Part shown: positions 20,530-64,000 of the stretch, piece after piece
Layout of the letters: every line of letters starts with the position of its first letter
Numbering within the stretch: the first letter of the stretch is position 1
NCBI GenBank assembly: GCA_914767715.1
Contig: OU612067.1
Location: 6,696,001-6,760,000, forward strand
Source of the DNA: Membranipora membranacea
Taxonomy: Eukaryota; Bryozoa; Gymnolaemata; Cheilostomatida; Membraniporidae
Length of the DNA stretch: 64,000 nucleotides
Reading direction: 5' to 3'
The notes under the pieces: generated by a model
The model's database searches: none
What the model was told of the DNA's origin: nothing
The model's input: only the letters and a program-made list of their open reading frames with translations
Made by a program: the position numbers and the translations under genes

Positions 20530-21480
20530 ACATGCGGTTACTGAATTCTGCTAAAATATCCTCTTCCTGAAATTCATGAGGAACATTTTGAACTATTACC
20601 GTGTCCATAGGTCTTTGAATGGTGTCTCTCGCTGAAGAAGCTCCAAGTAGACTTGAAGGCCAATTTTCTACTATTTGTTTCCTTATCATGTCGTCATCGA
20701 TATGTACAATGAACCTACTCCTGATTCCATCAGCTCGCTCTCCATGTAGTTCGTATTTATTGATGAGCTTTATTTCAGTCGGTCCATATTTTTGAAAAAT
20801 ACCGATCCTAATAACATCTCTGTTGAGGCTGGCATTTCTGCTCTCAACGTTGTAAAACCACCTGGATTACTATTCAGTGCCTCTTGAAGGTTTCTTTTGA
20901 CTAAATCAGATGCTAAAGGTTTTGCAGACACTTAAGCAGACAGCTCTCTGAATGCTTCCATTAGGCTTTGTACATCAGCATTGAGCTTTTCTATTTGGAT
21001 GTTGAGCGGCTTCCCAACAGACTCATCCATTGGTTTGGAGGACGCCACATTATTACACTCCACCTTTTCAATCTTATCTCTCAAAGATTCTATCTCTGAA
21101 GACAAAGATCTCACACGGGAAGCTAGCGTGATGCTGTTTTTACACTGATTGTTTTCAGCGTCTAGCGACGTGCTAGACATTCTATTATTACATTCCATTC
21201 TACTTACACTTCTATCGGAGAGGGGCGATCGGCTCCGGGAGACTGAATCAGCAGAACTGCTATCTCTGCATAGGGAATCCAGATAAGACTGGTCAAAGTC
21301 TGCCCATGTACATTGTACTCCAGCACGTCTTGAAAATTGTTCTGCTTCTTCAAGGGACACCCCACTAACCTTGTTTACTGCGGCGTTACATTTTAACCAG
21401 TTTTTTAATATTCCTGTGGTGTTGCCTTTTGCAACAGCATAAAATAATATATAGCCTTTCTTCTTCTTATGTTCGCTCAT
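20530..21480 (-). pseudogene. Transposon ORF with viroplasmin/RNase-H1-type N-terminal domain and coiled coil
   Basis: A 182-codon frame starts at 21480. Residues 8-50 (YILFYAVAKGNTTGILKNWL, then CNAAVNKVSGVSLEEAEQF) match the pattern of the RNase H1 hybrid-binding/caulimovirus-viroplasmin domain: YAV..G...GI...W..C...V....G...LEEAE.F. A Ser-rich linker follows, then heptad-like coiled coil at about residues 118-145 and 160-180. A TAA at 20932 interrupts the frame, which continues in phase as VSAKPLASDLVKRNLQEAL and then, after a frameshift, as a basic segment (YGPTEIKLINKYELHG) down to about 20530. This suggests the ORF1-like protein of a retroelement, now broken. The host element was not identified. 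Confidence 0.55.
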
Positions 21481-21566
21481 CGAGTCATTATAAGTAATAA
21501 ATCCAGTAATTTGACAAGAAAATTAGAGAGAAAATTTCTCTTCTTGACTACGCGACTCGCCGCCCC

Positions 21567-26488: not shown

Positions 26489-26587
26489 GCAAACGGTAAT
26501 ATTATACCAAATCCCATGTGAGAGAAAATTACAACGAATAGGTGAATATGTGAATAGTAGAATATCCATTCTCTTCGATTCCACAAG

Positions 26588-26935
26588 CTCAGAAATTCCT
26601 AGCCGAATAGTGAATAACCGAATAATCTTATTCATCATCTCTATAAGCTCAAAAAATTCCTAGCCGAACAGTGAATAACCGAATAATCTTATCCATCATC
26701 TCTATAAGCTCAGAAATTCCTAGCCGAATAGTGAATAACTGAATAATCTTATCCACCATCTCTATAAGCTCAAAAATTCCTAGCCGAATAGTGAATAACC
26801 GAATAATCTTATTCATCATCTCTATAAGCTCAGAAATTCCTAGCAGAATAGTGAATAAACGAATAATCTTATTCATCATCTCTATAAGCTCAGAAATTCC
26901 TAGCCGAATAGTGAATAACCAAATAATCCAATGAT
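26588..26935. repeat. 60-bp minisatellite, left arm
   Basis: About six copies of CTCAGAAATTCCTAGCCGAA plus TAGTGAATAACCGAATAATC and TTATTCATCATCTCTATAAG. They are the reverse complement of the units at 31138-31610. Because 60 is divisible by three, several frames stay open; these frames are not genes. Confidence 0.95.
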
Positions 26936-31137: not shown

Positions 31138-31610
31138 AGATTATTCGGTCATTCACTATTCCGCCGGGATTTTCTGAGCTTATAGAGATGATGAATAAGA
31201 ATATTCGGTTATTCACAATTCGGCTGTGAATTTCTGAGCTTATTGAGATGGTGGATAAGATTATTCGGTTATTCATTATTCGGCTGGGAATTTCTGCCCT
31301 TATAGAGATGATGAATAAGATTATTCGGTTATTCACTATTTGGCTGGGAATTTCTGAGCTTATTGAGATGGTGGATAAGATTATTCTGTTACTCACTATT
31401 CGGCTGGGAATTTCTGAGCTTCTTGAGATGGTGGATAAGATTATTCGGTTATTCACTATTCGGCTGGGAATTTCTGAGCTTATTGAGATGGTGGATAAGT
31501 TTATTCGGTTATTCACTATTCGGCTGGGAATTTCTGAGCTTATTGAGATGGTGGATAAGTTTATTCGGTTATTCACTATTCGGCTGGGAATTTCTGAGCT
31601 TGTGGAATCG
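31138..31610. repeat. 60-bp minisatellite, right arm
   Basis: About eight copies of TTATTCGGTTATTCACTATT plus CGGCTGGGAATTTCTGAGCT and TATTGAGATGGTGGATAAG. It is the inverted counterpart of the left array, with two more copies. All frames stay open because of the 60-base period. Confidence 0.95.
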
Positions 31611-34907: not shown

Positions 34908-36060
34908 CACCATTGACCGTTACACGATGAGATCGGTTTTCGAGCCAGCTTTAAATCCTGTTTCTTGTGTTTGGATGAATGACTAGTTGGGCCATTTTAA
35001 ACATTAATTTGGGATGGGAAACAACATCAAATGCTTTGGAGAAGTCCAAGATAATTAGGTCTAACGTGGACAGTAAGTCGTAGCTACTTACAAAATCAGT
35101 TATGGTATTAAGTAGTTGGGTATCGCATCCGTGTTTATTACGAAAGCCATGTTGATGCTCGTATAGGATCTGATGTTTGTCAAGATAGGCATGGATGTTG
35201 TGTGCAATAATGTGTTCAAGGTTTTTACATAAAATTGAAGTAAGAGAAATGGGCCTGTAATTGAGGGGATCTGACTTAGAATTTTTCTTATGAACGGGGA
35301 TCACATTGGCCTGTCTCCAGTCACTAGGGACTGTAGACGTTGTAATAGAGTACTGGTAAATTTTAGCAACAGTTTTGTAGATGTAGGGGGCAAGAAACTT
35401 CAGGAGTGCTGGCGAGAGATTATCAGGTCCTGTACTTTTAGTAGGGTCTAATTTATTGAGCAGACTGAAAACTCCGTTCTCATCGATTCGAATTTCGTCA
35501 GTTTGTAGGTGTTTGGGAGAAACTGGTGTGGGAAGGGTATTGTCGTCCACAGTGAATACCGACGTGAATGCCTCCACAAAACTCTCTGCAATGCCCTGGT
35601 CTCCGCTGGTACCATTAATATTTTTGATGGTGTTATTTTTCCTCTTTTATTGTTTATGAAGTTATAAAGTGGTTTTGGGTTTCCCTGGGCCAGTTTGTCA
35701 CAAATATGTTCATTCACATAATTGTTAAAATCATCGTTCGTGAGTTTTTTGCGATGCTGATTTTGTTCCTCAAGTTTCCTAATATTGAAGTCAGAGTTAT
35801 CTTTTCTAAGGTTCTTTTTCATACGTCTACGTTTTCTAATCTCACGGATAGTGCTTCTGGTGTACCAGTGCTTCTTTCGGTTGGTGGCAGGGTAATTTGG
35901 TATATGAGTCGTGGCAATTTTGTGTATATTTGTTTTGAGTTCATTCCATACATGGTCTATTATGGGCTGAGCTGAAGAAATCATGTTGTCTACGGACTTG
36001 CCTAGGCAATGAAAATCCAGAGATAATTCATAATGATTTGCCTCTTCAAATTTGAAAAAT
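34908..36060 (-). pseudogene. LINE ORF2, linker and N-terminal reverse transcriptase
   Basis: The minus-strand frame 35984 to about 35640 gives the basic linker (IREIRKRRRMKKNLRKDNSD). After a frameshift, 35577-34951 gives the reverse-transcriptase fingers/palm: STGPDNLSPALLKFLAP, VIPVHKKNSKSDPLNYRPIS, FRNKHGCDTQLL and LIILDFSKAFDVVSHPKL. A further shift gives WLENRSHRVTVNGVTSSS to 34908. The endonuclease is absent and the catalytic FADD region would lie on the other, forward half. The gene is dead. Confidence 0.85.
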
Positions 36061-36072
36061 GTCCTACTGACT

Positions 36073-37005
36073 CTATTGTCTAGTGATATCTATATCTATA
36101 CCAATATCTAAGGCAGCCGACTCAAGTGGTAATCCAGTAACCTCATCGACTTGGCGAAAGCGATTCTCATTGTTCACCACGGCCATAATTTTTCGACCTT
36201 TGATTTTATACTTGATGTTTTTGTCGCTGTTTATTTCCTCAAACAGAAGCTTTTGTTGCCTAATTTTATATTCAATGTCTCTCTCAGCCTTGCTTAGATC
36301 AGGCTTCGCAAACATCCGCCCCCTCTGACTCCACGTGTTGAAGGGATAGATAAAATCATTCCTATCAACCTCACACACAAAGCCAAGTTTGAGTGGGCAT
36401 GGGACGGTTCTATTCCTATGATTGTAGCCTAGCCTTTGGACGTTCATGACATTTCGATAGGGGAAATGCATTTCGGGACAAATACCTGACACAAACTCTT
36501 CAGCCCTACTAGTTTCTGGCAACATATAAATTATGCAGCTCTTACGCCTATCTGCCTCCTCCACTTTTTCATGATGTCTTGTCATCTGCTCAGCTATGCG
36601 TAAGCTGATCTCAGCAGCTCTTTCTCCTTCCTGAGAGGCTTTATTGATATTGGCTGCGGTCACCTCAGCAAAAGAGCGAGTTTGCTATAAGCTCTCTCGC
36701 AAGAGGTCACCCAGTCTACCAATGTCACCCTCTATTTTGTCGACTTTCTTTTCCAGTTGTGGCGCATGAACATAACCTTGCAGTTGTGGGACACAGTCAG
36801 GACAGTACCAGACTACACCAGGTCTGTTCAGCAGATCAAGATCAGAGGCTTTACTGATGTCTCGCCAGTCACTCAGACAGGACGAATGGTAGTCCTTGTG
36901 ACACAGATAACATGTTAGGAATTTATTGTTTGCTATATTGCTTGCACACGAGCCACACTTGCCAGGGCCTGACATACCCACCTCAATACACACCCAGCCC
37001 ACCAA
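36073..37005 (-). pseudogene. LINE ORF1 with PHD finger and RRM-like domain
   Basis: Starting at the ATG at about 36973 (MSGPGKCGSCASNI), a C4HC3 PHD finger is visible: CGSC, CYLC, H...C (HKDYHSSC) and CPDC within about 65 residues. A coiled-coil stretch follows (LEKKVDKIEGDIGRLGDLL). One TAG at about 36685 (RESL*QTRSF) interrupts; the same frame continues to 36073 with SCIIYMLPETSRAEEF, NVMNVQRLGYNHRNR and FAKPDLSKAERDIEYKIRQQ, an RRM-like ORF1 domain. PHD-containing ORF1 proteins are known in CR1/L2-clade LINEs. Only one stop in about 310 codons suggests a fairly recent insertion. Confidence 0.8.
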
Positions 37006-37498
37006 ACAACCTAGAGATAATAGACCACCTGCTACAGCGGTTCGCTTGATTGAGTTATAAGCCTGTTGGGTAGCACAGGTTGTTTTCAGCTTTAGTATAT
37101 ATTATATATACTATATAGTGATAAGGTTGGGCCAACACTGAATAAACATACATAGGAAGTACAAATATTTGATCATGCAACCGGGGTACAGTATTAGATG
37201 TTGTGACTTTTCTACCATGAGCTACCCTCCTCAGGAGGAGTGCAAACCAGTTAAGACCTACCGACCAATCTTCAGATTGAGTTAGCCTCAGCAACTTCAG
37301 ACTCACTGTTAGTATGTTATATCCTGGTAGCATATGAGATGAGCTTCAGTATAAAGTAGGATGATCTATTCTCGCTTTCCATTCAGTTTAAGCAGTGGAT
37401 GGCAGCGGTAAGTGATGATTTTTTACAGATTTGGTTGGTGATGTACACAGAGACAAATTTTTCACTTCTTGTTCACACGATGACCTTGACCTTGACCT

Positions 37499-49129: not shown

Positions 49130-50880
49130 GAATCGAATCTACTGGCCATCAATCTCAAAGACTAGTGTGAGTGTGCCTGATTGCCTTTTTTTTCTAGGCC
49201 TTCGACAGCGAGAGAAGAAGTACCCTATTAGAAATATACAGAGCGGCACAAACAAACTATACTCTACCATCAGTATTCTCATCGCTAATATTATAATTGT
49301 ATCCAATCTTTTCTCCGACTAATGCTAGTCAAAATCTAGTGCCAGCTGACATTTAGTCACCCCAAAACAAAACAAGCTGAATTTATAACAATAGCTAACA
49401 TTTACTCCTCTAGAGTATCATGCTCTCATGTCTGTGATCACGTGTTCTCATTAGTAATAACTTATACTATTCTTTTAATCAACACAGTATTAATTTTTGT
49501 TTTACACACAGAATAAGTGAATACTCATATAGCCTATATGCTCAAGGCCTCATCCAAGTTGTTGCTTTACTTTCCTTTGACAATAGTGAGGAGATAGATA
49601 GATCATAGCTACTTTTTTTAATGGATCTTAATATCGGACAAGACAATGTGATAAATTATTTAGGGTGCGTTTTTTGCCGTGCCAGCTGTGTGTCGGACAA
49701 AAAGCTCTTCGCTGTAGCAGTTATCACTTACTACTTTTCTTTTGTGTTGCGATTTATTTTTGTCATTTTTGAGGTGGTAATCCAAAGAAGTACTATACAA
49801 TATTACTGCCATAATTACTGTGACTTGTCCTGTCTACCATTTTTATGTTAATAATGTTAATAAACTGGCTCATTTCATACCTTATTATTTTGATCAAGAA
49901 AAATCAGGAGTTCTTTGACGCAGGCTATGGAGAATCTGTCGGCATCTGGCTGCTCTTACAATACAAATCTCGAACTTTGATACGAGTAATTTGTGTGTCA
50001 CAAATAAAGCTTGACTAGACTGAAATTCCTATGGAAAACATGCAAGATGAAAGAATATGGATATGAAAATTTTGAGCGGCCAACAAAGAGTATAATAAAG
50101 TATAGAAATTAATGCCACAAGCTTATGTTGACTGTTTGTTGGCGCTGTCTTGCAAATTTCTTAGCTCTGTGTATTGAGAAACTCAGTCGATCCCGATCAC
50201 CGATAATAGTTATGTACTTCTGATAAGATAGAAGATAATCCCTGTCCAAAGCAAGCATTGTTGAACCTCATCGAAGTCGTTCGTGTGCAGCTCAGAAAAA
50301 AACTAACCAGATATAATAGCTGCATCTGCTTGTTGAAGATCAAATTTAGGGCATAGGGATAGAGTTAATTACAGTCTCCGAAAAGAGAAATAATACGGTG
50401 TTTCGACAGAGCTAAAAGGCGAGTCAATGTAAAATTGCTGATGTTACATAGATATAAATAGAAATATAAAAATAATATTACTCATATCACTGAGTTCATA
50501 TACTTTATAGCCTTTGCTCGGTAGCAGTTGCTACAAAGGCTCACTCTAGTTTGTAATGTTCTGTATCGACGTGATGGTAGGCAGTCTAACGTGAAGAGGG
50601 GGTTATCAGCAAACATACGGAGGCAGCGTGATTTCATGCACCGGTTATATATAGTGCCAATATCATCAAAAGTACAGTCCCCCCATACTACATTATCATT
50701 TCAACAAAACATGAAACTAATAAATATTGCCATTGCGGGCATTCTCTATATTTTACCCTCAGTCAACAAATCAATACATTCAACAAGTTCTTTGTAAAAG
50801 AACAGTATTTAATAAGGGCGTTGCTATCAACTGAATGGAAGAAAATAAAGTTTTACTTGTCAAGCGAAAAAAAACAGAAG
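49130..50880. other. No gene recognised
   Basis: No convincing exon or RNA gene is visible. The last ~100 bases belong to the duplicated upstream region of the receptor genes (shared with about 51.45-51.6 and 57.1-57.25 kb). Confidence 0.4.
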
Positions 50881-50917
50881 AATTGGCCTATTCAGATGGC
50901 TGTATCCATGATAGTGG

Positions 50918-50932
50918 ACTTCCTCTTTCCTG
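50918..50932. promoter_or_regulatory. ETS-like motif in promoter copy 1
   Basis: ACTTCCTCTTTCCTG (reverse: CAGGAAAGAGGAAGT) contains an AGAGGAAGT core typical of PU.1/ETS sites. It lies 58 bases before the ATG at 50990 and is identical, at the same distance, in promoter copy 3 (57229-57243). Confidence 0.4.
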
Positions 50933-50989
50933 TAACTAACTTTAATTATAACACAAGGCTGAAGATCAGAGGTTTGTTAAACTAGGTCG

Positions 50990-53900
50990 ATGGGGATATT
51001 CAGATTCAAATTTGGATTGATCTTCTTAGCCTCAATTGTACCAAGATCGTGTGGTGAGTTTGAAAATATGTCAACATGTACCACAATCATATTTTGGCTG
51101 TGGCTGGGCCTGGCTCGCATATTTCTGACCTTGTGTGATTATTCCTCTTTTACAATAATACCTTATTACATTATTAGTTATGTTCTTCCGATAAGAGAGG
51201 GGATAACCCTTAATCATAATCTTACTGAGGCTGATGGTTATAGCCATAGACTTAATATATCTATAGTATGGTTATAGCAGCCACATTTGAACGTTTGTAG
51301 TTCTAAGAAACAACTACCAGCCATACAGATTAAATTGATTCATCCATTTGGTTAAAGGTAAATTTAGCCATACAACACTAACATTTCAAATTTGATGGCA
51401 ACTATTGCAGGGAGATTCATTTTTAGATTAATAAGAAAATCAAGCTTCAATAAACCACTTTACTTGTAAAAACACATAACAAGGGCGTTGCTTTTCGCTA
51501 GATGACATAAAATGAAGGGTTAATGGTTTGCATAAAATAACAGCCAACAATGAGCCCATTCAAATGCTCAGTATTCATGATTGTGAACTTCCCTCTTACC
51601 TATAAGGTAGGTGTTTTGATGGCTCAAAGAGCTCTGAAAATATCGATCCATCTAAATGCAGTGTATGCCTTCCGCATAACAAACTGGAAGGGAGGTTTGT
51701 TTCACTAGGACTATGGAGATATTCAGACTCAAACTTGGATTGATTTTCTTAGCCTCAATTTTACAGACATCGTGTGGTGAGTTACCAGTTACCGTCTGCT
51801 ATCAAATTTGGGCAGGGAAATCTGACAATCACTACTTTATTTACACTATACAAATATAAGACTTAATATTATCAGTATCTCGCCTGAATGATTGAACTAG
51901 ACTTGATCAACTAGAGCTTAACTTGTATCAGACTCTGTTACGACTCATGTTTGTTTGTTTTGTTCGTTTGTTTACTTGGTAGCTTTTCATCCGAAAATGC
52001 TTACAATTATAAAAAGTATGTCATAAAATCGCATTCTAATTGATCAATTATTAAAAATCCAAAGTCTTCCCTTGGTAGATTTCAAAAAGTGATGCAAAAA
52101 TAAATAGTATACAAAAATGTTAAAACTGGCTTAATCATTATATTATTTTGGACTAGCTAAAATAAAGTCACTCCGCCTTACAGTTCTGGTCTTTGCATAA
52201 TAAAAGTCAGGCTATGCGCTGCTGACTGCACGTTTTGGCCTGGCAGTTAGTTTAAATGCCATCCGTTCTCTGAGTGGGTGATCGATGTTTAGTCTGAATC
52301 TAGACATATAAGTTGGGCGCTGATCATCGAGTGCGGTGCACAAGGTTGGAATCTGTGCAGCTTTGAGCTTGTTGCAGTAATGTTCCACGTCATGGTAAGT
52401 TATTCGGAGTGCAAGCTTTTGACATTTCTCCAGATCAGATTTCTGCTGATCAGTGTGTATATAATTTAACCTACAGAATAGACTGACCTGAAATCTCCAT
52501 ATCGAATGACTAACTTCCTTATATTATTATTATTATTATTCTAAAAAATGCCTCTATTTGTAGGCTTTATCGAATCCAAGAGTGTGCTTAGAAAAAAAGT
52601 GAAAAATAGTATCGTAAGTGTATAAGTCACCATCAATTTTTTAGAGAGTGTTGTAAAGATAAATAGAGTTGATTTAACAAAAGAGTAACAAGGGACTCCT
52701 TGATTTAACTTGGCAATCTTTTGTATAGTATTATATTGTATAACGCGAATCTGACTGGCTCTCATCAGCCCTAAGGTTGATGCCAGCAGTCTGCTACTTA
52801 ATTAATTGTGCTTTGCCAGTTACCTATATTAGGATTGTGTTTTGCTCTTGCGTCTTGGTTTAAAATACATTCATTTGAATAATAATAATAATAATGCCGA
52901 CTCATCAGATTGTCGGCACAGACAGAGTGGTTGGTTTTTGGTTTTTGCACACGATCGTTGATCTGCAAAGGAAAGTTTGTTGTCAATGAGCACACCCAGG
53001 ATATTGGTGGATTGACATGTTTTAATGATGGTACCATTTAATAGAAAATTTTCAGTTGGTGGGTTCGAAAAGAACATGAGTTTGGTCTTGGATGTGTTAA
53101 TATTTAAATCGTCAATGGATGTATCCTCAATCAGTTTGAACCATGATTTATCTAAAATACTCTCATCCAGCTGTTTTCCAGGTGTAACATTCATATTATC
53201 CTCATATGTGGTAGGTAGATATTCTGACAAGTATACCTGTATGTTATATAGAATCCCTTCCAGAAGCTTACAGCCTAGGCGGTAGTCCTTTCATTATGTC
53301 ATTTTTTTGGATTTAATGATATAAAATTTGAACATATGTGATATGTGATGGAGGTTGTTCCCTCTGGTTTGTTGGCAGAGGAACATGGAAAAAGTCTTGA
53401 GTAATAGTAAAATAATAATTCCTCAGTGCATATTAAGATAGCAGTCTGCCTTATCTGGTTGCTGCTAGGTGGATTCCTGGTTAACTTACTGAGAAATGAT
53501 ATCTGTACCTTCCCTGTAGATTACTAGCTATCTTAGCCAGTTATTTACGTAACTTAGCACTAGATTTACCCTGCTAAGTTTGAGTAATCATTAGTTAGCA
53601 GCCAATTTCATGCCTGGGAGAAATTTAATACCCTCTGTGAATGTGTAAATGACAACTGGACTGAATGATACTGATAGTTACCAATGCAGCAGCATAACCT
53701 GCCTCAAAATAGTTTTCAGAACTATATAAAATGGAATCTTTGGAAGCAATACATAGTACCTACTAAGGCTACTAATAAAGGTTTATTATTAGTAGGTCTA
53801 TGGAAGCAATTAAGAAATGTAGAAGGACATCAGGTAAAGGACCAATAATATACCAGGCATAGTATGAAAGATAACTATGTTAAAATTTAGTTTGTCTTTT

Positions 53901-56417
53901 TTAGTGACAGGTTGTACAGTTGACTACCCTAATGCTACAATAAAACGTATACGAAACTCTGCATCAGTGCATTTCCTATTTTGTGCTGACTCTATGACTA
54001 CTTCTGTTATCATTTGCAAGGATGGGAGTTGGTCAGGGGGTCTCCATCCATTACTATGTCCAGGCCCGTCATCACTGATAGATTCCATAGGTGTCAGGCG
54101 TCAGGTAACAGGTGAGGGAACCAATACAATGCTCTTATAGTATCTCATTTGTTTTCCTTTGTGCTCGTTTATAGAATAATCAGGATTTTGTTTACATAAT
54201 TGATGTCGCAAATACAGGGTGCCTGTCAGCATGTTTCCATGTGAATTTTGAGGTTGGCCTAGATCGAGCTGAGTTTTCACCTCTTGACTCGACCTCATAT
54301 TATGCATCCATACCCATAGATAGATAGAGCTGAGAAAGAAAACATAAAAAAACCTGCCGCCACCGGGATTTGAACTCGGACCTCTTGTGCTGGGATCAGA
54401 TCGAACCGGTAGGTGTTTCAAAGGCTCATCAGGTCGATCCATCGAAATGCAGTGTAAACCTTCCTCACACAAAAAAACAAACTTTCATTTATATATCACC
54501 AATATTTTTAAGGAAAGCTTCATATATCGAGTTGTTCCTTTGAATATATAACCATATTCGTATACATTATTACTTTCATGGTTCATTGGCCTAGTATAGG
54601 TAAGCTAAAAACAGTAAAGGTAAAGAGCGGCCCATGTCTGAACAAGAGAGGAAACTCTTTTGTGCCATATTATGGAGCATCATTTTTTCACTTGCAGAGT
54701 TCACCAATTATTGTCCTACTACTACCACTCCTCCACCAACAGAACCTGCTAGTAGCATCGAAGGTACATCTGCACTATATCACCATAACCATTGTATCAC
54801 ACAAATCAATTTATATATTATGCAATAGTGTGAATGATGTAGTTGTGCTCTTACTACGTTGTAGAGGAAGTGGTATCGATGGTTTGCTGGACAAAATATC
54901 CAATCAAATCTTGTCAATAATGGGCCCAGGCCAATAATGGTAATATAAATCATCGAAGCCTCAACTACATGCCCAATGCTATTGCTAATGACCCTTTGCT
55001 GAAGGTTCAGTGTTTTGGAAAGTTGAACCACATTTGATGAGTTAAATCTTCTTTGTTATCAAACTATAGTTTTCCATGTTGATACCTTGCGATATACATG
55101 TACATATATACATGTAATGTTCTTGTCAAAAAACCAAAAGCGTTCAAACAAGATGAGAGTGACTGGGTAATAATATAACTTCACTGAGTGTTCCGATTTT
55201 TTCAGAAGTTCAGCAGAAACAGACCACACCTGAGAACCTTAGGGGTGAGCTAGTTTATATAACTACTAAACAAGAGAGTATTTCCATTGCAGCCCACAAA
55301 CAGCATTACCCAAGTTATAAAGTTGTTTGCAAATTGCAGAGTTAGATATTACAGTGTTAACACTGAGTTGTGCACTCATAGCTAAAAAGAGTATAATTTG
55401 TCGTTCTTTGGTTGAATTTGGCATTGATATAAATTGAGAGAACATGAAAAAGGTTGCCATACTGAGGTTGAAACGGTCCGAAAAATACACACCAAGATAT
55501 GCCCAACAAAATATATGAATCTTATAGTTCAATTAATTCCCTTGAAAGAGAGATCTATTTCCCTTTGGTTGTAGGTGATCAACCCATAGTCATAGTAAGT
55601 TCGATCTTTGGAGTTGTCTGCATACTTCTGGTTGCTGGTTTGGTTCTGTTAGGGATCAGAAACAGAAAGTTGACTACAGAAATGCAAAGGTATGCTGAGA
55701 TAATGGCTGATTGTCTTAATGAGCTAGATCCCTGGTCTTGGTAATAATTATTCCTTTCCATCCTTTTCTATCCTCATAGTTCAATGGTGATGATAAGCTA
55801 ATCACCGTTTCTATTTCAGATTGAATGCATCTGGGAAAACAACTCAACCTGCTATGGAAAGATGTGCCATCAAAGGTATCAATTTAGGAATGATGCAAAT
55901 ACATATTGAATGCGTTGTATAAATTTATTTACATTTACTTTTTCACATTTGAGGCATGATATTTCTTGACGAGTCAAAATAGCTACATGCTTTGAGTGAC
56001 TCATGTCCACATGTTCGTGCGACGCAAGATTAATGTCACTAGTTTGAATTATTGAAGACAAATCAAACCTGATTTAATATCTTCATTTTCTAAGAAAAAA
56101 GTTAGCTAAAGTACACATAAAATTGGAAAAATGAAATATTAATAATAACTTAGCCATAAAATGATTCCAAACACGTAGCGTTGCCTTTTTTTGAAGCTGG
56201 ATTGAACAATCCTACTAACTACGAGACTGTGGAATTGGACCTCTCCCGAATTAATCCAGCGCTTGATTATGAAACTGTCAATCAAGTCACCGCCGGAGCC
56301 AGTAATTATGAGAACGCTGGTATGGCAGGAAATATTCCGTCGCGAAATCCAGAGTATGAGATGGTGAAGCAAGAAGGAGGAGTAGAAGATCATGTGTATA
56401 CATCTCTGAATGAATAG
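50990..56417 (+). CDS. Receptor gene A: sushi-stalk-TM-tyrosine-motif tail
   Basis: Alternative first exons 50990-51053 (MGIFRFKFGLIFLASIVPRS) and 51713-51776 (MEIFRLKLGLIFLASILQTS) encode signal peptides and end in the same phase. Shared exons: 53905-54111, 54698-54763, 55206-55244, 55575-55689, 55820-55875, 56179-56417; 261 codons. Residues 22-90 form a four-Cys sushi/CCP domain (GCTVDYPNATIKR, ICKDGSWSG); 91-125 a Thr/Pro stalk; about 130-152 the membrane span (IVIVSSIFGVVCILLVAG). The tail has five tyrosines: Y197 (NYETV), Y213 (LDYETV, matching ITIM LxYxxV), Y226 (NYENA, Grb2-type YxN), Y242 (EYEMV) and Y256 (VYTSL). Probably a phosphotyrosine-signalling surface receptor. Compared with gene B it lacks both CUB-like exons; a LINE fragment occupies the corresponding intron. 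Confidence 0.8.
51604..51683 (-). repeat. SINE fragment in promoter copy 2
   Basis: TAGGTGTTTTGATGGCTCAA through ATCGATCCATCTAAATGCAG matches, with changes, the segment at about 54408-54475. It separates the (altered) ETS-like motif region from the first exon at 51713 and accounts for the longer spacing there. Confidence 0.5.
52240..53290 (-). pseudogene. LINE reverse-transcriptase C-terminal fragment
   Basis: Minus-strand frame 53230-52871 contains LNINTSKTKLMFFSNPPTEN and TNILGVLIDNKLSFADQ, the usual sequence after the YADD motif in LINE reverse transcriptases. Near 52425-52245 a second piece reads LALRITYHDVEHYCNKLKAA and MSRFRLNIDHPLRER, the extreme C-terminus. It is inserted between the signal-peptide exons and the sushi exon of gene A. 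Confidence 0.7.
54340..54480 (-). repeat. tRNA-related SINE in gene A intron
   Basis: On the minus strand GAGGTCCGAGTTCAAATCCC carries a B-box-like sequence; the head (CTGCATTTCGATGGATCGAC) is shared with the fragment at 51604-51683. It lies between the sushi and stalk exons. Confidence 0.5.
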
Positions 56418-57087
56418 AGACAAATGCTCATTCTGCTGAATAGGGTTGTTGATGCTAGACTGAGCCTCCCAGACACTTGCTAGTTTTTGTTTCTTTCAAT
56501 AATATTTATTTCTATGTGATGTTTTATAAAGTTTTATGTCACAAAATACTGTTGCGGGGTCTGAATTTAGTATTTCTCTGAGCTTTGTGTCAATCTAGAT
56601 ATCATGAGAGGAGCACTGTTGAGCCATTAGTAGTTGTGTCCTTCAGACAAGAGAGGGGATAACCCCTGATCTCAGCGAGCATCTGGAAACCCAGGATATA
56701 ACACCCCTATCAATATCTGATAATCCAGTCAATCGGATAGATAAGCTGAAGATTAGACTGAACCAGATATGAATGACTACCAGTTGAAGGTACTACAAAT
56801 TTAGCCATACTACACTACTATTTTCGTAAAGATCTGAATTGTCTTTGCACGCAAAGAATTACAAAAAAAAATTATTATAGTCAACCACTTACCTCAATTT
56901 TTCGGGTGGTAAATGACGTCTGTCTCCTAATATGTCTCATCTTAATATGCCTGTGACATCAGGATGACCCAACATGATAGGGTATCTAGGTATGCCCTGC
57001 CTAAACAAGGGTGTTACATGGTTTCAGTTTCGTCAAGTTTGACCTTCAACAAGTTGTTTGTAGAAATTGAGCATGTATCATCATAGC

Positions 57088-57115
57088 CATTGATATATAA
57101 ATTTATATATCAATG
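57088..57115. repeat. 28-bp perfect palindrome upstream of gene B
   Basis: CATTGATATATAAA is followed directly by its reverse complement, about 190 bases before the gene B ATG. Being AT-rich it could extrude as a cruciform or simply be chance in AT-rich DNA. Confidence 0.85.
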
Positions 57116-57228
57116 ATTGTAGCATGATGTTATCTTTTCGCTGAATGACACAAAATGAATGGTTAATAGTTTACATAAAAAAACAGCAAACAATGAGCCC
57201 ATTCAGATGGTTAGTATTCATGATCGTG

Positions 57229-57243
57229 GACTTCCTCTTTCCT
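57229..57243. promoter_or_regulatory. ETS-like motif in promoter copy 3 (gene B)
   Basis: Same 15 bases as at 50918-50932, 58 bases before the gene B ATG. The surrounding ~100 bases (CCCATTCAGATGG, GTATTCATGAT, CTAACTTTAAT) are also conserved between copies. Confidence 0.4.
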
Positions 57244-57301
57244 GTGACTAACTTTAATAAAAACGCAACACTTGAGATCAGAGGTTTGTTACGCAAGGAT
57301 G

Positions 57302-60300
57302 ATGGGGTTATCCAAATTCAGAATTGGATTGTTTGTCTACGTCTCGATTTCACAGATATTGTGTGGTGAGTTACATGCTATTAATGGAGTTGGACTTGGG
57401 ACCCAAGGATAATTTATCTCTTCTAACAACATCTTTTGCATAAAAAGAAGGGTAACCCCTCTAAGGCTTTATCAACTAGACCTGCTTTGTATCGGATTAC
57501 AACCCATGCTGGGTTATGTCTACACACGTGTATGAAATATTGGCAATACAAAATAGGGTATCTGGATAGTTGATAGGCCTACACTTCAGCACCTATGAAA
57601 CAAATAGAACAGACTTCCGAAACTGATCCCTTAGATATAACTTCCTCATTGTTTGATCTGTTACAGTGTAATAACATTTGAGATGAATTTACAACTTTCA
57701 TCTACATCCTGTATAAGTTAGCTGTGCAGTATACAAAGTTGGTAGGAGACTGAACCATGTCTAATGTAGTGGTCTTTTGGTTGTGGCTGTTGTTTGAATA
57801 TTGTAAATTTTGTTGATAAAATGTACAAATCATTTCGTTACACCCTATATTTACGTCATAGAAAGTCTTGGAGTTTATTGCTTATGTTATTGAACTTCTG
57901 CACTGGCAAAACGTTGATCAGTACAAAACATCTATATCTTAACAATCATGCTTATCACTACCCAAAAAAGTAAATATTAGCCAAAGTAAATTTTAACTAG
58001 TTTGGGGCTGACATCATGTGTTCTTTAGCTTACGAAAATGGGTGTTGATAACAAAAATAACCAGGTTGAGTGAAAGTTGGTTAGAACTAAATTTCAATTG
58101 CCTGTGAGAAATGGCGAGCTTATCCTGTGAATACTTTACACCTCAGTGGTATACACTGTTATAGATATGTGAATGGGAGCGTTCTCACTTCATGGGTCAC
58201 AAAGAAGTCAATATGACAAGAGCAGCTCCAGAGTTATGTGACGGCTATCGATTGCAAATCGACTGTAAATTAATATATCACGATTATATATAACAATACC
58301 AGAGTAGTTAAATTATAAGGGAATTTATGTTGTAGGTGCATACCGATTTCCAGACTTCGGTGCTGAGACAGTTTCTATTGATATGAGCTATGATGGGAAC
58401 CGAGCCGGCACAATTCAGAACCCTCTTATGAATCAAACGAATGATTCCGCTGATTCCTATATAGTGTTCAGCAATCTTCCTCCAGTTGTTTGGTTATCAC
58501 TGAAGTATACTTCTAACTCGTGTCAACCACTCCCTTTTGAAATTACTGCATTGCAAGACCAGAAAGTGACTTTCAGTACTTCCCTATGCAACGCAACAAG
58601 CGAAGCAATCATAAATATAGCCCACTACATTGATGCATTGACCTTTACTTTACCAGCGACCACACAAATCCCAGAATTCCAGCTAAGATACCAGAGTAAG
58701 TGCATCAATACCTATATACCATGTCTATAATTTATAGTACAGTATAAGCTGGCTAATTCAAACTTTTTAACTCGAAACTCCTGTAGTTAGACTCATATTA
58801 AAATATGCGACCAGAAAACAGCTCCCAGTCTGAGAGAGATCTATCAAATCACGCAGAACATTCTCTTTTGTGAACTCAGCTCATCACTAGTTTTGCTAAC
58901 GTACACCTGAGGAAATATCTGCCGTGTTGGAAGGGTGTTGAAGCCATAGATATCAAAACAGTATTATTATATTTATGGTTGAAGCCTATTTTAGGCTGAG
59001 ATTTGATTGCGCAATTGTGACACTATATTTCTATGCAGCTATGCTTGCCAAATCCCTTAGCAAACATCAATACTTTCCCGTGAATTTCTCAACAAACTCA
59101 TGAATATAATTATTTTAGCAGTCGACTGCAGCTCACTGCCCCACATGTCCCATTGAAAGTAGCTGTTTATAAAATGTGCTGTAACACCTTTGGCAGTGTT
59201 TTATGGATGTTTATGCTCAATGTTTTTCTTGTCTTTTCAGTAAGATATGACGTCTCCATCCTAAGAAAAGAACCAAACACAGTCGCAGTTAATATATCCA
59301 CTCCATCAGGTTACATTATGAGCCATGAAAACTTTAATTTTGGTGTAGACATTCCTGCTGCATCATTATTACAAGCTCCAAAATCAGCGTCCTATCTGCG
59401 CTGGACCGACAGCTCTCTACTTCTCATACTTCCTCCAGCTACTACTCATGTACATCTCTACTTTGTACACTATAATATCGGTAATAATAATGTCACGTTA
59501 TTGGAGCAGGCACAACCTGATAACAATTTAGATCAGTTTGCTGTTTACAATGGGGATACAGCGCTCTACAAATACGCTGGTGGAAATTTACCGCCACCTA
59601 ATCAGACAATTGACATCACCACTGATAACAGCACACTCCGCTTTACGTTCAAATCAAACAGTGCCTTACCGGAAAATACAACCGGGTTTACAGGATTTCT
59701 GCTCCGTTATAAAGGTGTGTATAGTATTCATTGCTTTGTGCTTCTGTTTGGTAGACAGGAAAATTTTCTGATACAAAGCCGATTTGAGCCACAAAAGTAT
59801 TCATATTTCACAGTTTACCAAGATTTTTATTCTCATCATTAAACTTTTAATATGGCAACTGGATTGCATGATTATCACTTCTAATGAGCATCATTCCCTG
59901 AACAGTAACATGTCACAAAACAAAAGAAGAAACCAGCAAAATTAGTTCAGTAGCAAAATTTCAAATAATACAAATTGTAGTACTTAATTTTCCATGTACC
60001 AGTGACAGGTTGTAAAGTAGACTACCCTAATGCTACAATAAAACGTCAACTCAACTCTGTATCGACGTTTATCCTATCCTGTGCTGACAATGAGACTACT
60101 GATGAAATCATATGTATCGATGGAACATGGTCAGGGAGTCTACCTCCATCACAATGTCCAGGCCCGTCTCCACCGGTACATTCTACAATGGTCACAAGTA
60201 AGGAATTCTTTGTCTTCCGTCGCATTGCTTTAATTGTTCTAACTTATTTTTCGCTTGGATATAGCCTTCCAAGAATAGTCTCTAACTTAGCTTGTCACAA

Positions 60301-62288
60301 TTGATGTTACCTGTACAGGGTGCTTAATTCTATCAAAAATTCCATAAACATCACGAATTTTAGACCATCTACAATGAGTTTCATATATTGAGTCCTCCTT
60401 TGTAGCCTTCTAGCTATACCAATGGCAGTAAATGATCTATAACGGTGTCTGGTGTTATCACTCAAGTCTGCATATATACACACGGCTATGCATAACCCGT
60501 ACAATGTTTGATTCTTCAATAGACATCAACTGGCATGTAAGCTAAAGAATAGGCCAGCTCACACAAACAGAAAATGAGGAGGGCTGAGCTGGTTTGTGAC
60601 TGTTTGATCTTACATAACGCCACTAAAAGACTTTGCTTGGACCCTGTCAGAACAGTAGAAGTTCTGTCTGATTTCTTTGTATGATACAAAAGTTTTTTTT
60701 ACTTTCAGAAATCGCACCTAATGGCAGTACAAAAACTTCTCAACCAACAGAAGCCACTGGCAGTACTGGTAGTACTGATTCTACTGGCAGTACAGGCACC
60801 ACTGGCTCTACTGGCGCCACTGGCAACACTAGCACTACACAAGCTGCAAGTTCAAATAGCTTTAATACAACTGTTGCCACCCCAGATTCCAAAAGTACTG
60901 ATATGATGATTCAGACCAATTCTATCCAGTCGTGGGAGATGATACACACAGTATCTGTGGCAGCTGGTGGAGGCGGTCTCGTACTGATTATCATCATCGT
61001 GATTTTGGGCGTGGTCATCTGTAGGAATAAATCCGATACCAGGTTAGTATCAAAATTCTGAGCAGAATACATCTAAATAATATCAACATAGTCATAAAAT
61101 GTCCAGCACATACAATGTTAGCTTTGTTGAATCTACAACAAGCATATACATTCATAGCTTCTTTGTCAATTATGATTTTGAGAAGTGAAACCTTTTCACT
61201 CTGTGGTTCCAGAGAACAGACAAAACATAGAGATAGGGAGGACGTGGATACAAGCCAGTGTCCAGACAATGATTATCACTGCCTGGAGGAGAATGTAGAT
61301 GGGTGTAATGAGACTCATCTACAATCAGGTATGCTGACATGTTATTTGTCTCGCTACAGGCTCATTTTTGCTACAAAAAACTTTGTTTGAAATGATAAGA
61401 GGATAAGTAACGTTAGATAATTTTGTGTCTATTCGAGCGATGACAATGCTTGAGGAACTACAGGTTCGGATTAGTGTGTCTTCTTTGCTTCAATAAATCT
61501 CACGTACAAATTTGTTTATTACCATCAAGAACAGCTATCCAGCTGAGGTTACATGGCATCTATTTGCCCTTTCTCAGCTTGTTGGAACTGCAGAGATTAA
61601 TTTTGTTGCCACACTAAATTATTTTCTCCAGGAAATAACAGAGACAGTGACGGTGATGGTTATGCTATGGTTGATATGTCTGAAAACAGGAGAGCCGCAG
61701 AAGCTGCAGAGAACGAAGATCATAAACCATCATCAGAAATGATTGATCCAAGCGATGGAGGCCCATATTCTACAGTAATTATAGTATCTGACAAGTCTTA
61801 CACCTCATGTGAGGAGGATACCCACAATGCAGCTGAAGATAAGGATGTACAGGTAGAGGAGAGCTCTACTGCTGTCTCTGACTCTACAGACAAGGCAGAC
61901 GGAGAGCTAGGCTGTGAGAGAGATGAGGACGATGTGGATACTTACGCAAACCAGGCAACAATAAAGAGACAGTAAGTTAGATTATCTTGTGACAGTACCG
62001 TTACTTACCAGTCAAAATAGGTCATATTGTAGGTGCTACAGTTCAACTTGAACTACTATTCAATAGGTCATATTGTCAGTGTCAACTTGAACTAGTAGTC
62101 AATAAGTCATTATAGGTCATGACACTGACCATCTCTTTTCTTCTGACAGGAACACTGAAAAACAGAAAGGAACCACTGATTTGTATGGAAGCATTTTGGC
62201 TGAAAATAAGAAGAAGCCAGCGTCAGATGAACAGCCAATGACATCTACAGACTCAGATATGGTGGAAAATGACCTATACGGTACATAG
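57302..62288 (+). CDS. Receptor gene B: CUB-like x2, sushi, mucin-like stalk, TM, tyrosine-motif tail
   Basis: Eight exons: 57302-57365, 58336-58695, 59241-59714, 60003-60197, 60709-61042, 61213-61328, 61632-61971, 62150-62288; all GT-AG, consistent phases, 673 codons. Residues 1-21 signal peptide; 22-141 first CUB-related module (SYIVFSNLPPVVWLSLKY); 142-299 CUB-like module (LDQFAVYNGDTALYKYAG, ending GFTGFLLRYK) without the usual cysteines and with many NxS/T sites; 300-364 sushi domain (GCKVDYPNATIKRQ, ICIDGTWSG); Thr/Gly/Ser stalk; membrane span about 448-468 (GLVLIIIIVILGVVI). The acidic tail holds YHCL, YAMV, YSTV, YANQ (Grb2-type) and YGSI. Extracellular exons are phase 1-1 modules, typical of exon shuffling. 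Likely a type I phosphotyrosine-signalling receptor; ligand unknown. Confidence 0.85.
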
Positions 62289-63241
62289 GCATAGTAGAGC
62301 TATCGGGATTGTTTACCAAGCAAAATCATCTCAACGTGCGATATATAATAATTGATTAATCCCAGTGAGTCTGACACTATGTTTGGTCAGTACACAAAAA
62401 GAGGATTACCATCTCATCTGGGTTTCAGTTGCAGAATCATAAAAAAAAGAGACATGTTTGTGTTTCTCTACAACTTTACGCGACGCATATTCCTATACCA
62501 ACAATCAGATTTATTACTTACGAATTCATCAAACTTTATCCCTGAAGAAACTCCATCTATGTATAAACTTATTGAATTAAATTATTGAATTTGTGAAATG
62601 AATTGATGTAATCGCAATTTTTTTGACGACAATGATTTCAGTTAAGATCTTTTATATTAACTATCAAAGATTTGGTGATGTTGCTACTATGGTTATTTAC
62701 AAAATTATTTTTTTCCGTTGTCATTATGAAATACATAGGTTAACTTTTTGTTTGATCACATCCTAGTACCATTCTGCATGCTGCATACAATTCTGCAAAC
62801 AACTAAACAAGTATGATTTGCTCCTATTGTGACATATACAAAAAAAACTGTACAAAACGGTATACATGCATGCATCTGTTAATCGCCGCCTTTACTGAGG
62901 GAAAGCTTCTGAGATAACCCATCACTGGTAATAACAACTCAAATAATCGCTCTTTCTATTAGGGTGTTTTTTTCAGGTCATGCATCTCTACCTAGGCTAG
63001 ATATAGCAATATTATGACTAGTTTTTTAATATGTTTGCATGATGGTTAATATCCTATAGTCTTTTTGTATCCTTTGTCTGGTTGAAACAATAGTGTTCTT
63101 AGAAATGAAAAGTATGAATGCTGACCAAATATTTATATAGCATATTCAGTGCAGCTTTGAAGAAGGAAGTACTACTACTTCTTGGGTGTTGTGTTATGCT
63201 GCTAATCATTCGTCTCAAACAAGGAGTGTCTCTAGTAAAAC
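62289..63241. other. Intergenic between receptor genes B and C
   Basis: 3' UTR of gene B (no canonical AATAAA; GAATTAAATT near 62572-62581 is a weak candidate) and the promoter of gene C. The duplicated promoter block of genes A and B is not found here. Confidence 0.4.
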
Positions 63242-64000
63242 ATGAAGTCTCTAATGTTTCTGGTTATAATCATCATGTTAAGCTCAATATCTAAAGGTAT
63301 GACTATCTGCTTGTTCTTCTAAGTAAGTAGATGGTTTTCATTTCTTCTCTACCTCGAGAACTATAATCATCCATTATGTATCAGGGTGACAATGCTTGGT
63401 AGATCGTCATGATTGGAAACATTTATGACTGCCAGTCAAGACTGGTTTAAACGATCATTCATTTATTTTTATAGAGGTTTATGGATATCAATTTCTGCAA
63501 TCAAACACCACCATAGATATTGCACTACGCAGTAATCGCCACGGCAGAATCTTAAGTCCCAGCCATCAAAACGCTTACATTGGTGGAACAACATTTTTCA
63601 TCACTTTCATCAATCTCCCTGAGTTATTCTGGTTTAAGATGGAGGCATTTCTTGTTGGCTATGGCAGTTCATGTATGACATTGCCAGTCAAGTTCAGCCT
63701 GTCACATCCTTATGGACCCGTCAAACTCACTCAAACCTGTAGCCAATGCTGTAGCTGTGGAATAATGGTATATGACTCTGTGGTCAGAAGGGGAGACTCT
63801 GAGTATCTGGTAATGAGTACACAGGCCAAGTTTCAGGAGGTTCCATACCGGCTTTTGAAATATTTTATTGGAGTAAGGAGATAAGTAATATGTATACACA
63901 TTATGATGTTTCAAAATGGTAATATTGTGATTGTGAGCAGCCCAGAAGTACTCTCTACTTCTGGACTGCAGAAGATTACTTATTTCCTAGGACATTTTCT
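63242..64000 (+). CDS. Receptor gene C, 5' part (runs off window)
   Basis: Exon 1, 63242-63296, encodes a signal peptide (MKSLMFLVIIIMLSSIS) ending in phase 1. Exon 2 starts at 63475 and encodes the same module as gene B exon 2: TTIDIALRSNRHGRILSPS, FFITFINLPELFWFKMEAF and a Cys-rich part (TCSQCCSCGIMVYDS). A donor (GTAAGG) follows at 63873, but joining there would leave phase 0 instead of the phase 1 of gene B; read straight on, the frame stops at 63884. It is either a gene with a changed exon border, a short secreted form, or a damaged copy. The rest lies beyond the window. Confidence 0.6.

What the first reader, a model, noticed from the sequence alone, without database searches (positions are those of the whole stretch)
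50880..64000. Tandem family of CUB/sushi transmembrane receptors with ITIM-like tyrosine motifs
Three adjacent plus-strand genes share signal-peptide exons, sushi and CUB-like modules on phase-1 introns, a stalk, one membrane span, and (in A and B) long tails rich in YxxV/L/I and YxN motifs. One, LDYETV, fits the ITIM consensus (S/I/V/L)xYxx(I/V/L). Domain-shuffled, tandemly duplicated receptors with inhibitory or activating tyrosine motifs are the usual make-up of innate-immune or allorecognition systems. I know of no described family with this exact order. Sequence shows the modules; immune role is inference.
Basis: partly seen in the sequence, partly recalled or inferred. Interest (0 to 1): 0.88.

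Follow-up and report, generated by a model that had tools for sequence, protein, structure and literature searches.

The report
Bryozoan receptor array with swappable tails
The finding is the edge of a large array of cell-surface receptor genes in a colony-forming sea-mat animal, in which similar outer parts appear on two different signalling tails, as in immune or self-recognition receptors; the function itself is untested.

Summary
Genes A and B are real, coherent type-I membrane receptor genes; gene C's membrane span and tail lie outside the window. The genome is Membranipora membranacea (colonial bryozoan), chromosome 3. A, B and C are the left edge of a ~125-kb same-strand array of 21 gene units, many broken. 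Related clusters lie at 15.7-16.1 and 24.95-25.50 Mb, almost all on this chromosome.

Two tail classes carry conserved tyrosines. Near-identical promoter, signal-peptide and CUB1-like DNA (95.6% over 1.93 kb) sits on opposite tails in B and a partly broken downstream gene; two open genes of opposite tails share CUB1-CUB2 DNA at 85.7%. This is a hallmark of paired receptors.

Corrections: A has no CUB-like module and C no sushi. Sushi identity holds only by profile-profile comparison, CUB identity is weak, CUB1 has no fold match. The highlighted ITIM (LDYETV) is not beyond chance (P 0.18) and is absent from the related array; four other A-tail tyrosines are near-invariant.

Best reading: paired phosphotyrosine-signalling recognition receptors, possibly for allorecognition. 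Structure is shown; ligand, signalling and role are inferred.

The parts
50990..51053 (+). Orphan signal-peptide exon (MGIFRFKFGLIFLASIVPRSC) with donor; duplicate of the SP exons at 51713 and 57302, no downstream exon assigned
   Evidence: translation; self-blastn: 79% and 87% identity to the other two copies and their upstream DNA
51713..51776 (+). Gene A exon 1, signal peptide (phase 1 end)
53905..54111 (+). Gene A exon 2, sushi-like module (4 Cys + Trp)
   Evidence: 62.5% aa identity to B's; hhalign to sushi of this genome
54698..54763 (+). Gene A exon 3, short Thr/Pro stalk
55206..55244 (+). Gene A exon 4, short stalk
   Evidence: conserved in the paralogue at 73838
55575..55689 (+). Gene A exon 5, membrane span (19-residue hydropathy up to 2.9)
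   Evidence: seven further copies in array 1
55820..55875 (+). Gene A exon 6, juxtamembrane
56197..56417 (+). Gene A exon 7, A-type tail with five tyrosines and stop
   Evidence: start corrected from 56179
56214..56231 (+). Y1 motif TNYETV (TxYxxV, ITSM-like; consensus recalled)
   Evidence: Tyr kept in 6 of 6 array-1 and 13 of 15 array-3 tails, the other 2 being gapped there
56262..56279 (+). Y2 motif LDYETV (the ITIM-consensus match)
   Evidence: Tyr in 6 of 6 intact array-1 tails, 0 of 15 array-3 tails (10 aligned, 5 gapped; one has a Tyr one column away); chance P 0.18
56307..56315 (+). Y3 motif YEN (YxN)
   Evidence: 14 of 15 array-3 tails keep Y
56355..56366 (+). Y4 motif YEMV
   Evidence: 15 of 15 array-3 tails keep Y
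56397..56408 (+). Y5 motif YTSL near the C-terminus
   Evidence: 15 of 15 array-3 tails keep Y
57302..57365 (+). Gene B exon 1, signal peptide
58336..58695 (+). Gene B exon 2, CUB1-like module (fold not established)
   Evidence: similarity to C; 1.93 kb around it 95.6% identical to an A-tail gene; model without a clear fold match
59241..59714 (+). Gene B exon 3, CUB2-like beta module; the Cys pair of the other intact copies is lost here
60003..60197 (+). Gene B exon 4, sushi-like module
60709..61042 (+). Gene B exon 5, Ser/Thr/Gly-rich stalk and membrane span
   Evidence: tandem repeats
61213..61328 (+). Gene B exon 6, tail
61632..61971 (+). Gene B exon 7, tail with YAMV (61661-61672), YSTV (61766-61777), YAN (61943-61951)
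   Evidence: Tyr in 10, 10 and 11 of 11 B-type exon copies, two of them identical
62150..62288 (+). Gene B exon 8, tail end with YGSI (62184-62195) and C-terminal LYGT (62274-62285)
   Evidence: both Tyr in 11 of 11 copies, two of them identical
63242..63296 (+). Gene C exon 1, signal peptide
63475..63885 (+). Gene C exon 2, CUB1-related module (3' border uncertain; open frame runs to 63884). The rest of the gene lies outside the window (to about 68.3 kb)

Best explanation
This is the left edge of a tandem array of type-I membrane receptors on chromosome 3 of the colonial bryozoan Membranipora membranacea. The commonest gene joins a modular ectodomain (signal peptide, CUB1-like, CUB2-like, short sushi-like module, stalk) to one of two tail classes. 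SHOWN by sequence: the modules, the exon structure, the array, the two tail classes, the conserved tyrosines, and closely similar ectodomain DNA on opposite tails. INFERRED: the receptors bind a cell-surface or foreign ligand through the ectodomain; Src-type kinases phosphorylate the tail; each tail class recruits a different set of SH2 proteins (A-type YxxV/YxxL sites suggest phosphatase recruitment, YxN sites in both suggest Grb2-type adaptors; preferences recalled). The two classes would then give different or opposed outputs from similar recognition units, as vertebrate paired receptors do. The most likely biology is innate immune or colony self/non-self recognition.
For: Array of 21 units, about 125 kb, one strand (my unit list). 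Matches on C3: 93 of 94 for the B ectodomain, 60 of 63 for the A TM+tail, 46 of 47 for the B TM+tail (E<=10, window genes included), while C3 is 10.3% of the genome. Splice sites at the template place in 54 of 54 and 66 of 66 testable paralogue exon edges. Promoter+SP+CUB1 of B is 95.6% identical over 1.93 kb to an A-tail gene, then 83%, then a different tail class; an A-tail unit (107.7-113.1 kb) and a B-tail unit (123.8-128.2 kb), both open in the exons read, share 1.45 kb of CUB1-CUB2 DNA at 85.7%. In the CUB1 tree (8 rows) tail class is one clade in 0% of 200 bootstrap trees. A-tail: 4 of 5 tyrosines 0.93-1.0 identical between arrays against 0.54 for 61 other columns. B-tail: five tyrosine columns hold Y in 10, 10, 11, 11, 11 of 11 copies. 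Sushi-like pN/pS 0.85 against 0.51-0.52 for CUB1/CUB2 (codon bootstrap P 0.009, 0.007). SH2 exons are present (44 matches).
Against: No transcript, protein or phosphorylation evidence was available. The two tail classes have no tested opposed effect, and neither carries a strict ITIM conserved between arrays or a two-site ITAM. YxxV/I/L also fits clathrin-adaptor sorting signals. The permutation test over all five A-tail tyrosines gives P 0.051; 0.0004 appears only after leaving out Y2, which is post hoc. Many units look broken: 6 of 12 A-tail exons hold a stop or frameshift, and so do parts of the very A-tail gene that shares B's head. In the CUB2 and sushi trees tail class is one clade in 2% and 28% of bootstraps, and shuffled labels match the CUB1 result in 192 of 500. 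No close cross-tail pair exists for the sushi module (lowest dS 0.28), so only the outer part is exchanged. High sushi pN/pS may be relaxed constraint (95% interval 0.63-1.14) and does not exceed the A-tail's clearly (P 0.135).
Confidence: 0.55

Rival explanations
1. Endocytic or scavenger receptors: the YxxV/I/L motifs are clathrin-adaptor sorting signals, and the array is an expanded set of uptake or filtering receptors for food or microbes rather than SH2-signalling receptors.
For: All conserved YxxV/I/L sites also fit the YxxPhi sorting consensus (recalled). CUB modules occur in cubilin-like uptake receptors (recalled), and the best PDB sequence hit of the CUB2 exon is cubilin (E 0.15). 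A large true-CUB cluster exists on the same chromosome.
Against: Both tails also conserve a YxN site, which is no sorting signal. Several spaced tyrosines per tail are more than uptake needs. Two tail classes on similar ectodomains are not expected.
Confidence: 0.22
2. Gamete- or cell-adhesion receptors with phosphotyrosine scaffolding, expanded by sexual conflict or tissue-specific adhesion and not by immunity.
For: Fast-evolving sushi-like module, tandem array, single span, Ser/Thr-rich stalks.
Against: Nothing here speaks specifically for it. The head-swap between tail classes fits signalling choice better.
Confidence: 0.13
3. Mostly a decaying, neutrally duplicating tandem array with few working genes; the motifs are leftovers.
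For: Many exons carry stops or frameshifts; several units lack whole modules; sushi pN/pS near 1.
Against: CUB1, CUB2, TM and tail modules of intact copies have pooled pN/pS 0.34-0.59; A, B and one further unit read through, the latter with one script-chosen border; tail tyrosines are conserved between arrays, arrays 1 and 2 sharing about 31-42% in CUB2.
Confidence: 0.1

Closest known systems
Fester family (FF) and fester co-receptors (FcoR) of Botryllus schlosseri (PMC12065747, passages read)
   Same: Colonial animal; clustered, polygenic receptors with a sushi domain; FcoR are type-I with long tails that can hold ITIM, hemITAM or core YxxI/L/V motifs; some FcoR alleles and splice forms swap one motif for the other.
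   Different: FF/FcoR ectodomains have Ig domains; none was recognised here (Pfam misses the sushi module too), and CUB-like beta modules stand in that place. Fester has three membrane spans. The tails here carry no strict ITIM conserved between arrays. Chordate against lophotrochozoan, so shared design is most likely convergent.
Hydractinia Alr receptors (as cited in PMC12065747; otherwise recalled)
   Same: Gene complex in a colonial animal, single-span receptors, tyrosine motifs in the tail.
   Different: Alr ectodomains are Ig-superfamily (recalled); the modules here are sushi-like and CUB-like.
Vertebrate paired receptors such as KIR, LILR, SIRP, FcR-like (recalled; PMC2413239 seen in a search listing only)
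   Same: Similar ectodomains on different tails within one tandem array; sharp identity breaks between head and tail.
   Different: Activating vertebrate members usually have a short tail with a charged TM residue and an adaptor. Here both classes have long, tyrosine-bearing tails and the spans of A and B hold no charged residue.
SEZ6 / CSMD CUB-sushi membrane proteins (recalled)
   Same: CUB and sushi modules on a single-span protein.
   Different: Single-copy, conserved, with canonical CUB and sushi repeats; this family is tandem, divergent, and not recognised by Pfam CUB or Sushi models.

Membership tests
Sushi (CCP) domain | Above the Pfam Sushi cut-off | tested here: not met
   no match; an array-2 relative reaches E 0.33, 11.8 bits against a cut-off of 20.7
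Sushi (CCP) domain | Four-cysteine, one-tryptophan pattern and profile similarity to true sushi | tested here: met
   3 of 4 Cys and the Trp invariant in 10 intact copies, the 4th Cys lost in one; hhalign, local mode, to 24 sushi-pattern stretches in eight loci around Pfam sushi hits: probability 81%, score 25.6 over 30 columns against 16.95 as the best of 60 column shuffles; global mode only 10.9%
CUB domain | Above the Pfam CUB cut-off, or profile match to known CUB | tested here: not met
   no CUB match; profile of 7 CUB2 copies finds no CUB in PDB
CUB domain | CUB jelly-roll fold | tested here: inconclusive
ITIM receptors | (S/I/V/L)xYxx(I/V/L) in the tail | tested here: met
   LDYETV once in A, none in B; the site is kept in 6 of 6 intact array-1 A-tails; chance P 0.18; no Tyr there in 15 array-3 tails, 5 of them gapped
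ITIM receptors | Phosphorylation-dependent SHP/SHIP binding and inhibition | not testable with these tools
   needs peptides or cells; SH2 exons exist; the phosphatase search did not complete
Paired receptors | Similar ectodomains on different tail classes in one cluster | tested here: met
   95.6% over 1.93 kb between a B-tail gene and a partly broken A-tail gene, 85.7% over 1.45 kb between two open ones; trees are consistent but weak
Paired receptors | Opposed signalling output of the two classes | not testable with these tools
   no functional data
Botryllus FF/FcoR | Ig domain in the ectodomain | tested here: inconclusive
   no Ig family in the Pfam scans of A, B, C or exons, but the same scans miss the sushi module
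Allorecognition system | High polymorphism that tracks fusion or rejection | not testable with these tools
   one haplotype only; an alternate haplotype exists as GCA_914767555.1

The most novel reading that the evidence does not exclude
The chromosome-3 superfamily (arrays at 6.75-6.87, 15.7-16.1 and 24.95-25.50 Mb, with a few further CUB2-like matches at 30.3-30.8 Mb) is the histocompatibility complex of a bryozoan: paired receptors with exchangeable heads and two phosphotyrosine tails that decide colony fusion or rejection. It would be a third colonial phylum, after cnidarians and tunicates, reaching tyrosine-motif receptors for allorecognition, with CUB-like and sushi-like modules in place of Ig domains.
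Probability: 0.17. Interest if true: 0.95.

Novelty: new variant of a known kind. Interest (0 to 1): 0.74.

Why it matters
Bryozoans fuse or reject neighbouring colonies (titles such as 'Kin or self-recognition? [quoted passage not shown] Three searches with bryozoan terms listed 8 of 8, 10 of 311 and 10 of 7,465 papers (titles and starts of abstracts only), and none of these names bryozoan genes for it; the library lacks most subscription papers. A multi-gene receptor superfamily on one chromosome, with head swaps between two conserved phosphotyrosine tails, gives concrete candidates that existing data can test: RNA-seq ERR6464929 and the alternate haplotype GCA_914767555.1, both named in the genome note. 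If right, it would be another independent arrival at the paired-receptor design. If wrong about recognition, it is still a large tyrosine-tailed receptor family in a phylum with little molecular immunology.

Tried and rejected
Sponge or tunicate origin: my first guess from the receptor style, which shaped; rejected by mitochondrial code 5 and by the contig lengths.

Homologues in the protein database: B gave none at E<=1 among the 8000 candidates scored.

Structure: CUB2 alone and CUB1 with C gave low-confidence models. The CUB1 model found no match at E<=0.001. The GOLD fold ranked first for CUB2 by VIA-align and is not excluded. Sushi alignment A1 found no sushi in PDB, nor did A2 find a CUB.

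hemITAM in the B tail (DGDGYAMV): considered from memory; array 2 has GEDNYASV, so the Gly before Tyr is not conserved. Not claimed.

SHP search: SH2 answered (44 matches at E<=0.001; on C9 two SH2 starts within 3 kb). Tyrosine phosphatase (PF00102) did not complete, so SHP itself was not shown.

Weak A-TM matches at C3:21.3-21.4 Mb (E 0.6-1.9) and B-TM matches at C3:17.5-17.7 Mb (E 0.14-0.5) are not claimed as family.

Rows dropped before counts: exon hits under 50% identity or covering under 55% of the module; then exons with stops (CUB1 1 of 9, CUB2 2 of 12, sushi 1 of 12, A-tail 6 of 12); then one CUB2 and one sushi copy with a frameshift-like end. Array-3 tails: 15 read (14 fetched plus the one in L030); two of them (L041, L043) lack the Y1 region. 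One further array-3 match (15909232, C-terminal part only) was not fetched. In one search the two exon sets differ by one unit, and L029 and L046 are identical rows. Splice counts use only module copies at 50% identity or more that match to the edge.

The family sushi alignment included the array-2 relative; a first attempt collected no known sushi and gave no result.
Full report
ORGANISM. The window is C3:6,696,001-6,760,000 of a 339,339,785-base genome in 18 contigs. COX1 lies on contig C18 with 10 in-frame TGA and reads sensibly with AGR=Ser, ATA=Met and AAA=Lys, which is mitochondrial code 5 and not the sponge, echinoderm or tunicate codes (which residues are expected is my judgement). Contig lengths C1 41,072,641, C5 29,963,023 and C3 35.04 Mb equal the longest scaffold, N50 and chromosome 3 of the Membranipora membranacea assembly tzMemMemb1.1 (PMC10290214, sections 4 and 5 read; lengths here). 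This is a cheilostome bryozoan, sequenced from a colony. The published assembly lists 21 scaffolds and 339.4 Mb, so a few small contigs are not held here.

GENE MODELS. Gene A: seven exons, 51713-56417, 255 aa. Gene B: eight exons, 57302-62288, 673 aa. Both read through with GT-AG borders. Gene C starts at 63242 and continues beyond the window; its A-type TM exon is at 67330-67444 and its tail ends near 68.28 kb, after an open Ser/Thr repeat stretch at about 66.2-66.8 kb that I take for its stalk. The orphan SP exon at 50990 is a third copy of the promoter and first exon.

ARRAY. Twenty 10-kb stretches around the window were fetched. Searching the modules in 263 kb gave nothing better than E 0.19 in the 80 kb upstream of the window and in its first 50 kb, and a run of copies from window 51 kb to 175.8 kb, all on the plus strand; the last 7 kb fetched hold none. 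I count 21 gene units, 12 with A-type and 9 with B-type tails (my list). Where a copy matches a module to its edge, the splice site is at the template's codon and phase in 54 of 54 acceptors and 66 of 66 donors. Several units are broken or lack modules.

WHOLE GENOME. The B ectodomain has 94 matches at E<=10; 93 are on C3, in the window's array, in a second array at 24.95-25.50 Mb (CUB2-like at 31-42% identity) and in a few places at 30.3-30.8 Mb. The A TM+tail has 63 matches, 60 on C3, including a third array at 15.717-16.10 Mb. The B TM+tail has 47 matches, 46 on C3. C3 is 10.3% of the genome. One array-2 gene (L029) has CUB1-like, CUB2-like, sushi-like, TM and B-type tail exons. One array-3 gene (L030) has a beta-type open stretch, four sushi-pattern open stretches (one over the Pfam cut-off), an A-type TM and an A-type tail; its splicing was not modelled. 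Tail class and ectodomain kind are therefore combined differently in different arrays.

HEAD SWAP. B from 57000 to 58916 (upstream DNA, SP, first intron, CUB1 exon and the start of the next intron) is 95.6% identical to 75528-77444 of a downstream gene with A-type TM and tail exons. Identity then falls to 83% over the CUB2 part and 77% over sushi, and no match of 150 bases or more at E<=1e-10 remains over TM and tail. CUB1 exons of the two differ by dS 0, dN 0.026. That A-tail gene itself has frameshift-like breaks in its sushi and tail exons. A second pair, whose read exons are all open, shares 1.45 kb of CUB1-CUB2 DNA at 85.7%, then 73.7% over sushi and no tail match. The sushi module shows no close cross-tail pair (lowest dS 0.28), so exchange seems to stop between CUB2 and sushi. 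Trees: tail class is one clade in 0% (CUB1, 8 rows), 2% (CUB2, 9 rows) and 28% (sushi, 10 rows) of 200 bootstraps; shuffled labels need as few changes in 192, 55-61 and 58-65 of 500. These trees show mixing but are weak tests.

TAILS. Between 6 intact array-1 and 15 array-3 A-tails, cross-array identity is 1.0 (Y1, TxYxxV in A), 0.0 (Y2, LDYETV; 10 aligned and 5 gapped rows, one with a Tyr a column away), 0.93 (Y3, YEN), 1.0 (Y4, YEMV), 1.0 (Y5, YTSL); 61 other columns average 0.54. Permutation P is 0.051 for all five and 0.0004 for the four without Y2, the latter post hoc. In 11 copies of each B-type tail exon (array 1, two C-type genes, array 2; two rows identical), five tyrosine columns hold Y in 10, 10, 11, 11 and 11. 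By shuffling, YxxV/I/L is enriched in both window tails (P 0.0025, 0.0024), but a single ITIM match is not (P 0.18). The conserved signal is thus a multi-tyrosine tail, and the ITIM proper is a local feature of array 1.

SELECTION. Pooled pN/pS: CUB1 0.51, CUB2 0.52, sushi 0.85 (0.63-1.14), A-TM 0.36, A-tail 0.59, B-tail exons 0.34-0.45; sushi exceeds CUB1 and CUB2 by codon bootstrap (P 0.009, 0.007) but not the A-tail (P 0.135). Pairwise medians: sushi 0.88 with 13 of 43 pairs over 1, CUB1 0.36, CUB2 0.45. Between A and B the sushi exon has dN 0.282 and dS 0.279, while flanking introns do not align. The membrane-proximal sushi-like module is therefore the most changeable ectodomain part. Whether this is diversifying or relaxed selection cannot be told here.

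DOMAINS. Sushi-like: no Pfam match, but local hhalign to 24 sushi-pattern stretches of this genome gives probability 81%, E 1.2e-5, and beats all 60 column shuffles; the global mode gives 10.9%. CUB2: the eight best Foldseek hits come from entries with CUB domains, yet TM-scores are 0.31-0.39, the model is poor (pLDDT 47.5), VIA-align puts GOLD domains first, phmmer finds cubilin only at E 0.15, and a 7-row profile finds no CUB. The other intact copies hold a Cys pair at the place expected for CUB, which B has lost on both sides (expectation recalled). I call it CUB-like with reserve. CUB1 has no fold assignment.

MECHANISM. Steps shown: open gene structure, single span, extracellular modules, two conserved tyrosine tails, head exchange, SH2 exons in the genome (44 matches). 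Steps inferred: expression, ligand binding, kinase action, which SH2 proteins bind, and opposite output of the two tails. The closest working parallel is Botryllus FF/FcoR, whose FcoR tails carry ITIM, hemITAM or core YxxI/L/V motifs (PMC12065747, passages); no Ig domain, which defines that family, was recognised here, though the same Pfam scans also miss the sushi module. Literature searches with bryozoan terms (listings only, two of them capped at 10 rows) showed no paper on such genes in bryozoans; most subscription papers are not held.

VERDICT.

Noticed in passing
window 34951-37101, minus strand: Non-LTR retrotransposon remains: reverse transcriptase (Pfam RVT_1, E 4.6e-11) and, beside it, an ORF with a PHD finger (E 3e-5).
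   Followed up: partly
window 20935-21522, minus strand: ORF with a ribonuclease H1 N-terminal-type domain (Pfam PF01693, E 3.9e-8), perhaps part of a transposable element.
   Followed up: no
window 26585-26928 and 31138-31601: Two arrays of a 60-base tandem unit whose consensus units look like reverse complements of each other, about 4.2 kb apart (judged by eye).
   Followed up: no
window 50990-51053 and upstream: An unused-looking third copy of the promoter and signal-peptide exon in front of gene A, which could be an alternative first exon.
   Followed up: partly
window 59241-59714 against other array copies: Gene B's CUB2-like module has lost both cysteines of a pair that the other intact copies keep.
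   Followed up: no
G000 C3:22.76-23.60 Mb: Very large cluster of canonical CUB exons on the same chromosome; most matches cover only one half of the CUB profile, as if an intron splits it.
   Followed up: no
G000 C3:16.0195-16.0275 Mb (L030): Gene with four sushi-pattern stretches and an A-type TM and tail: the same tail on another ectodomain.
   Followed up: partly
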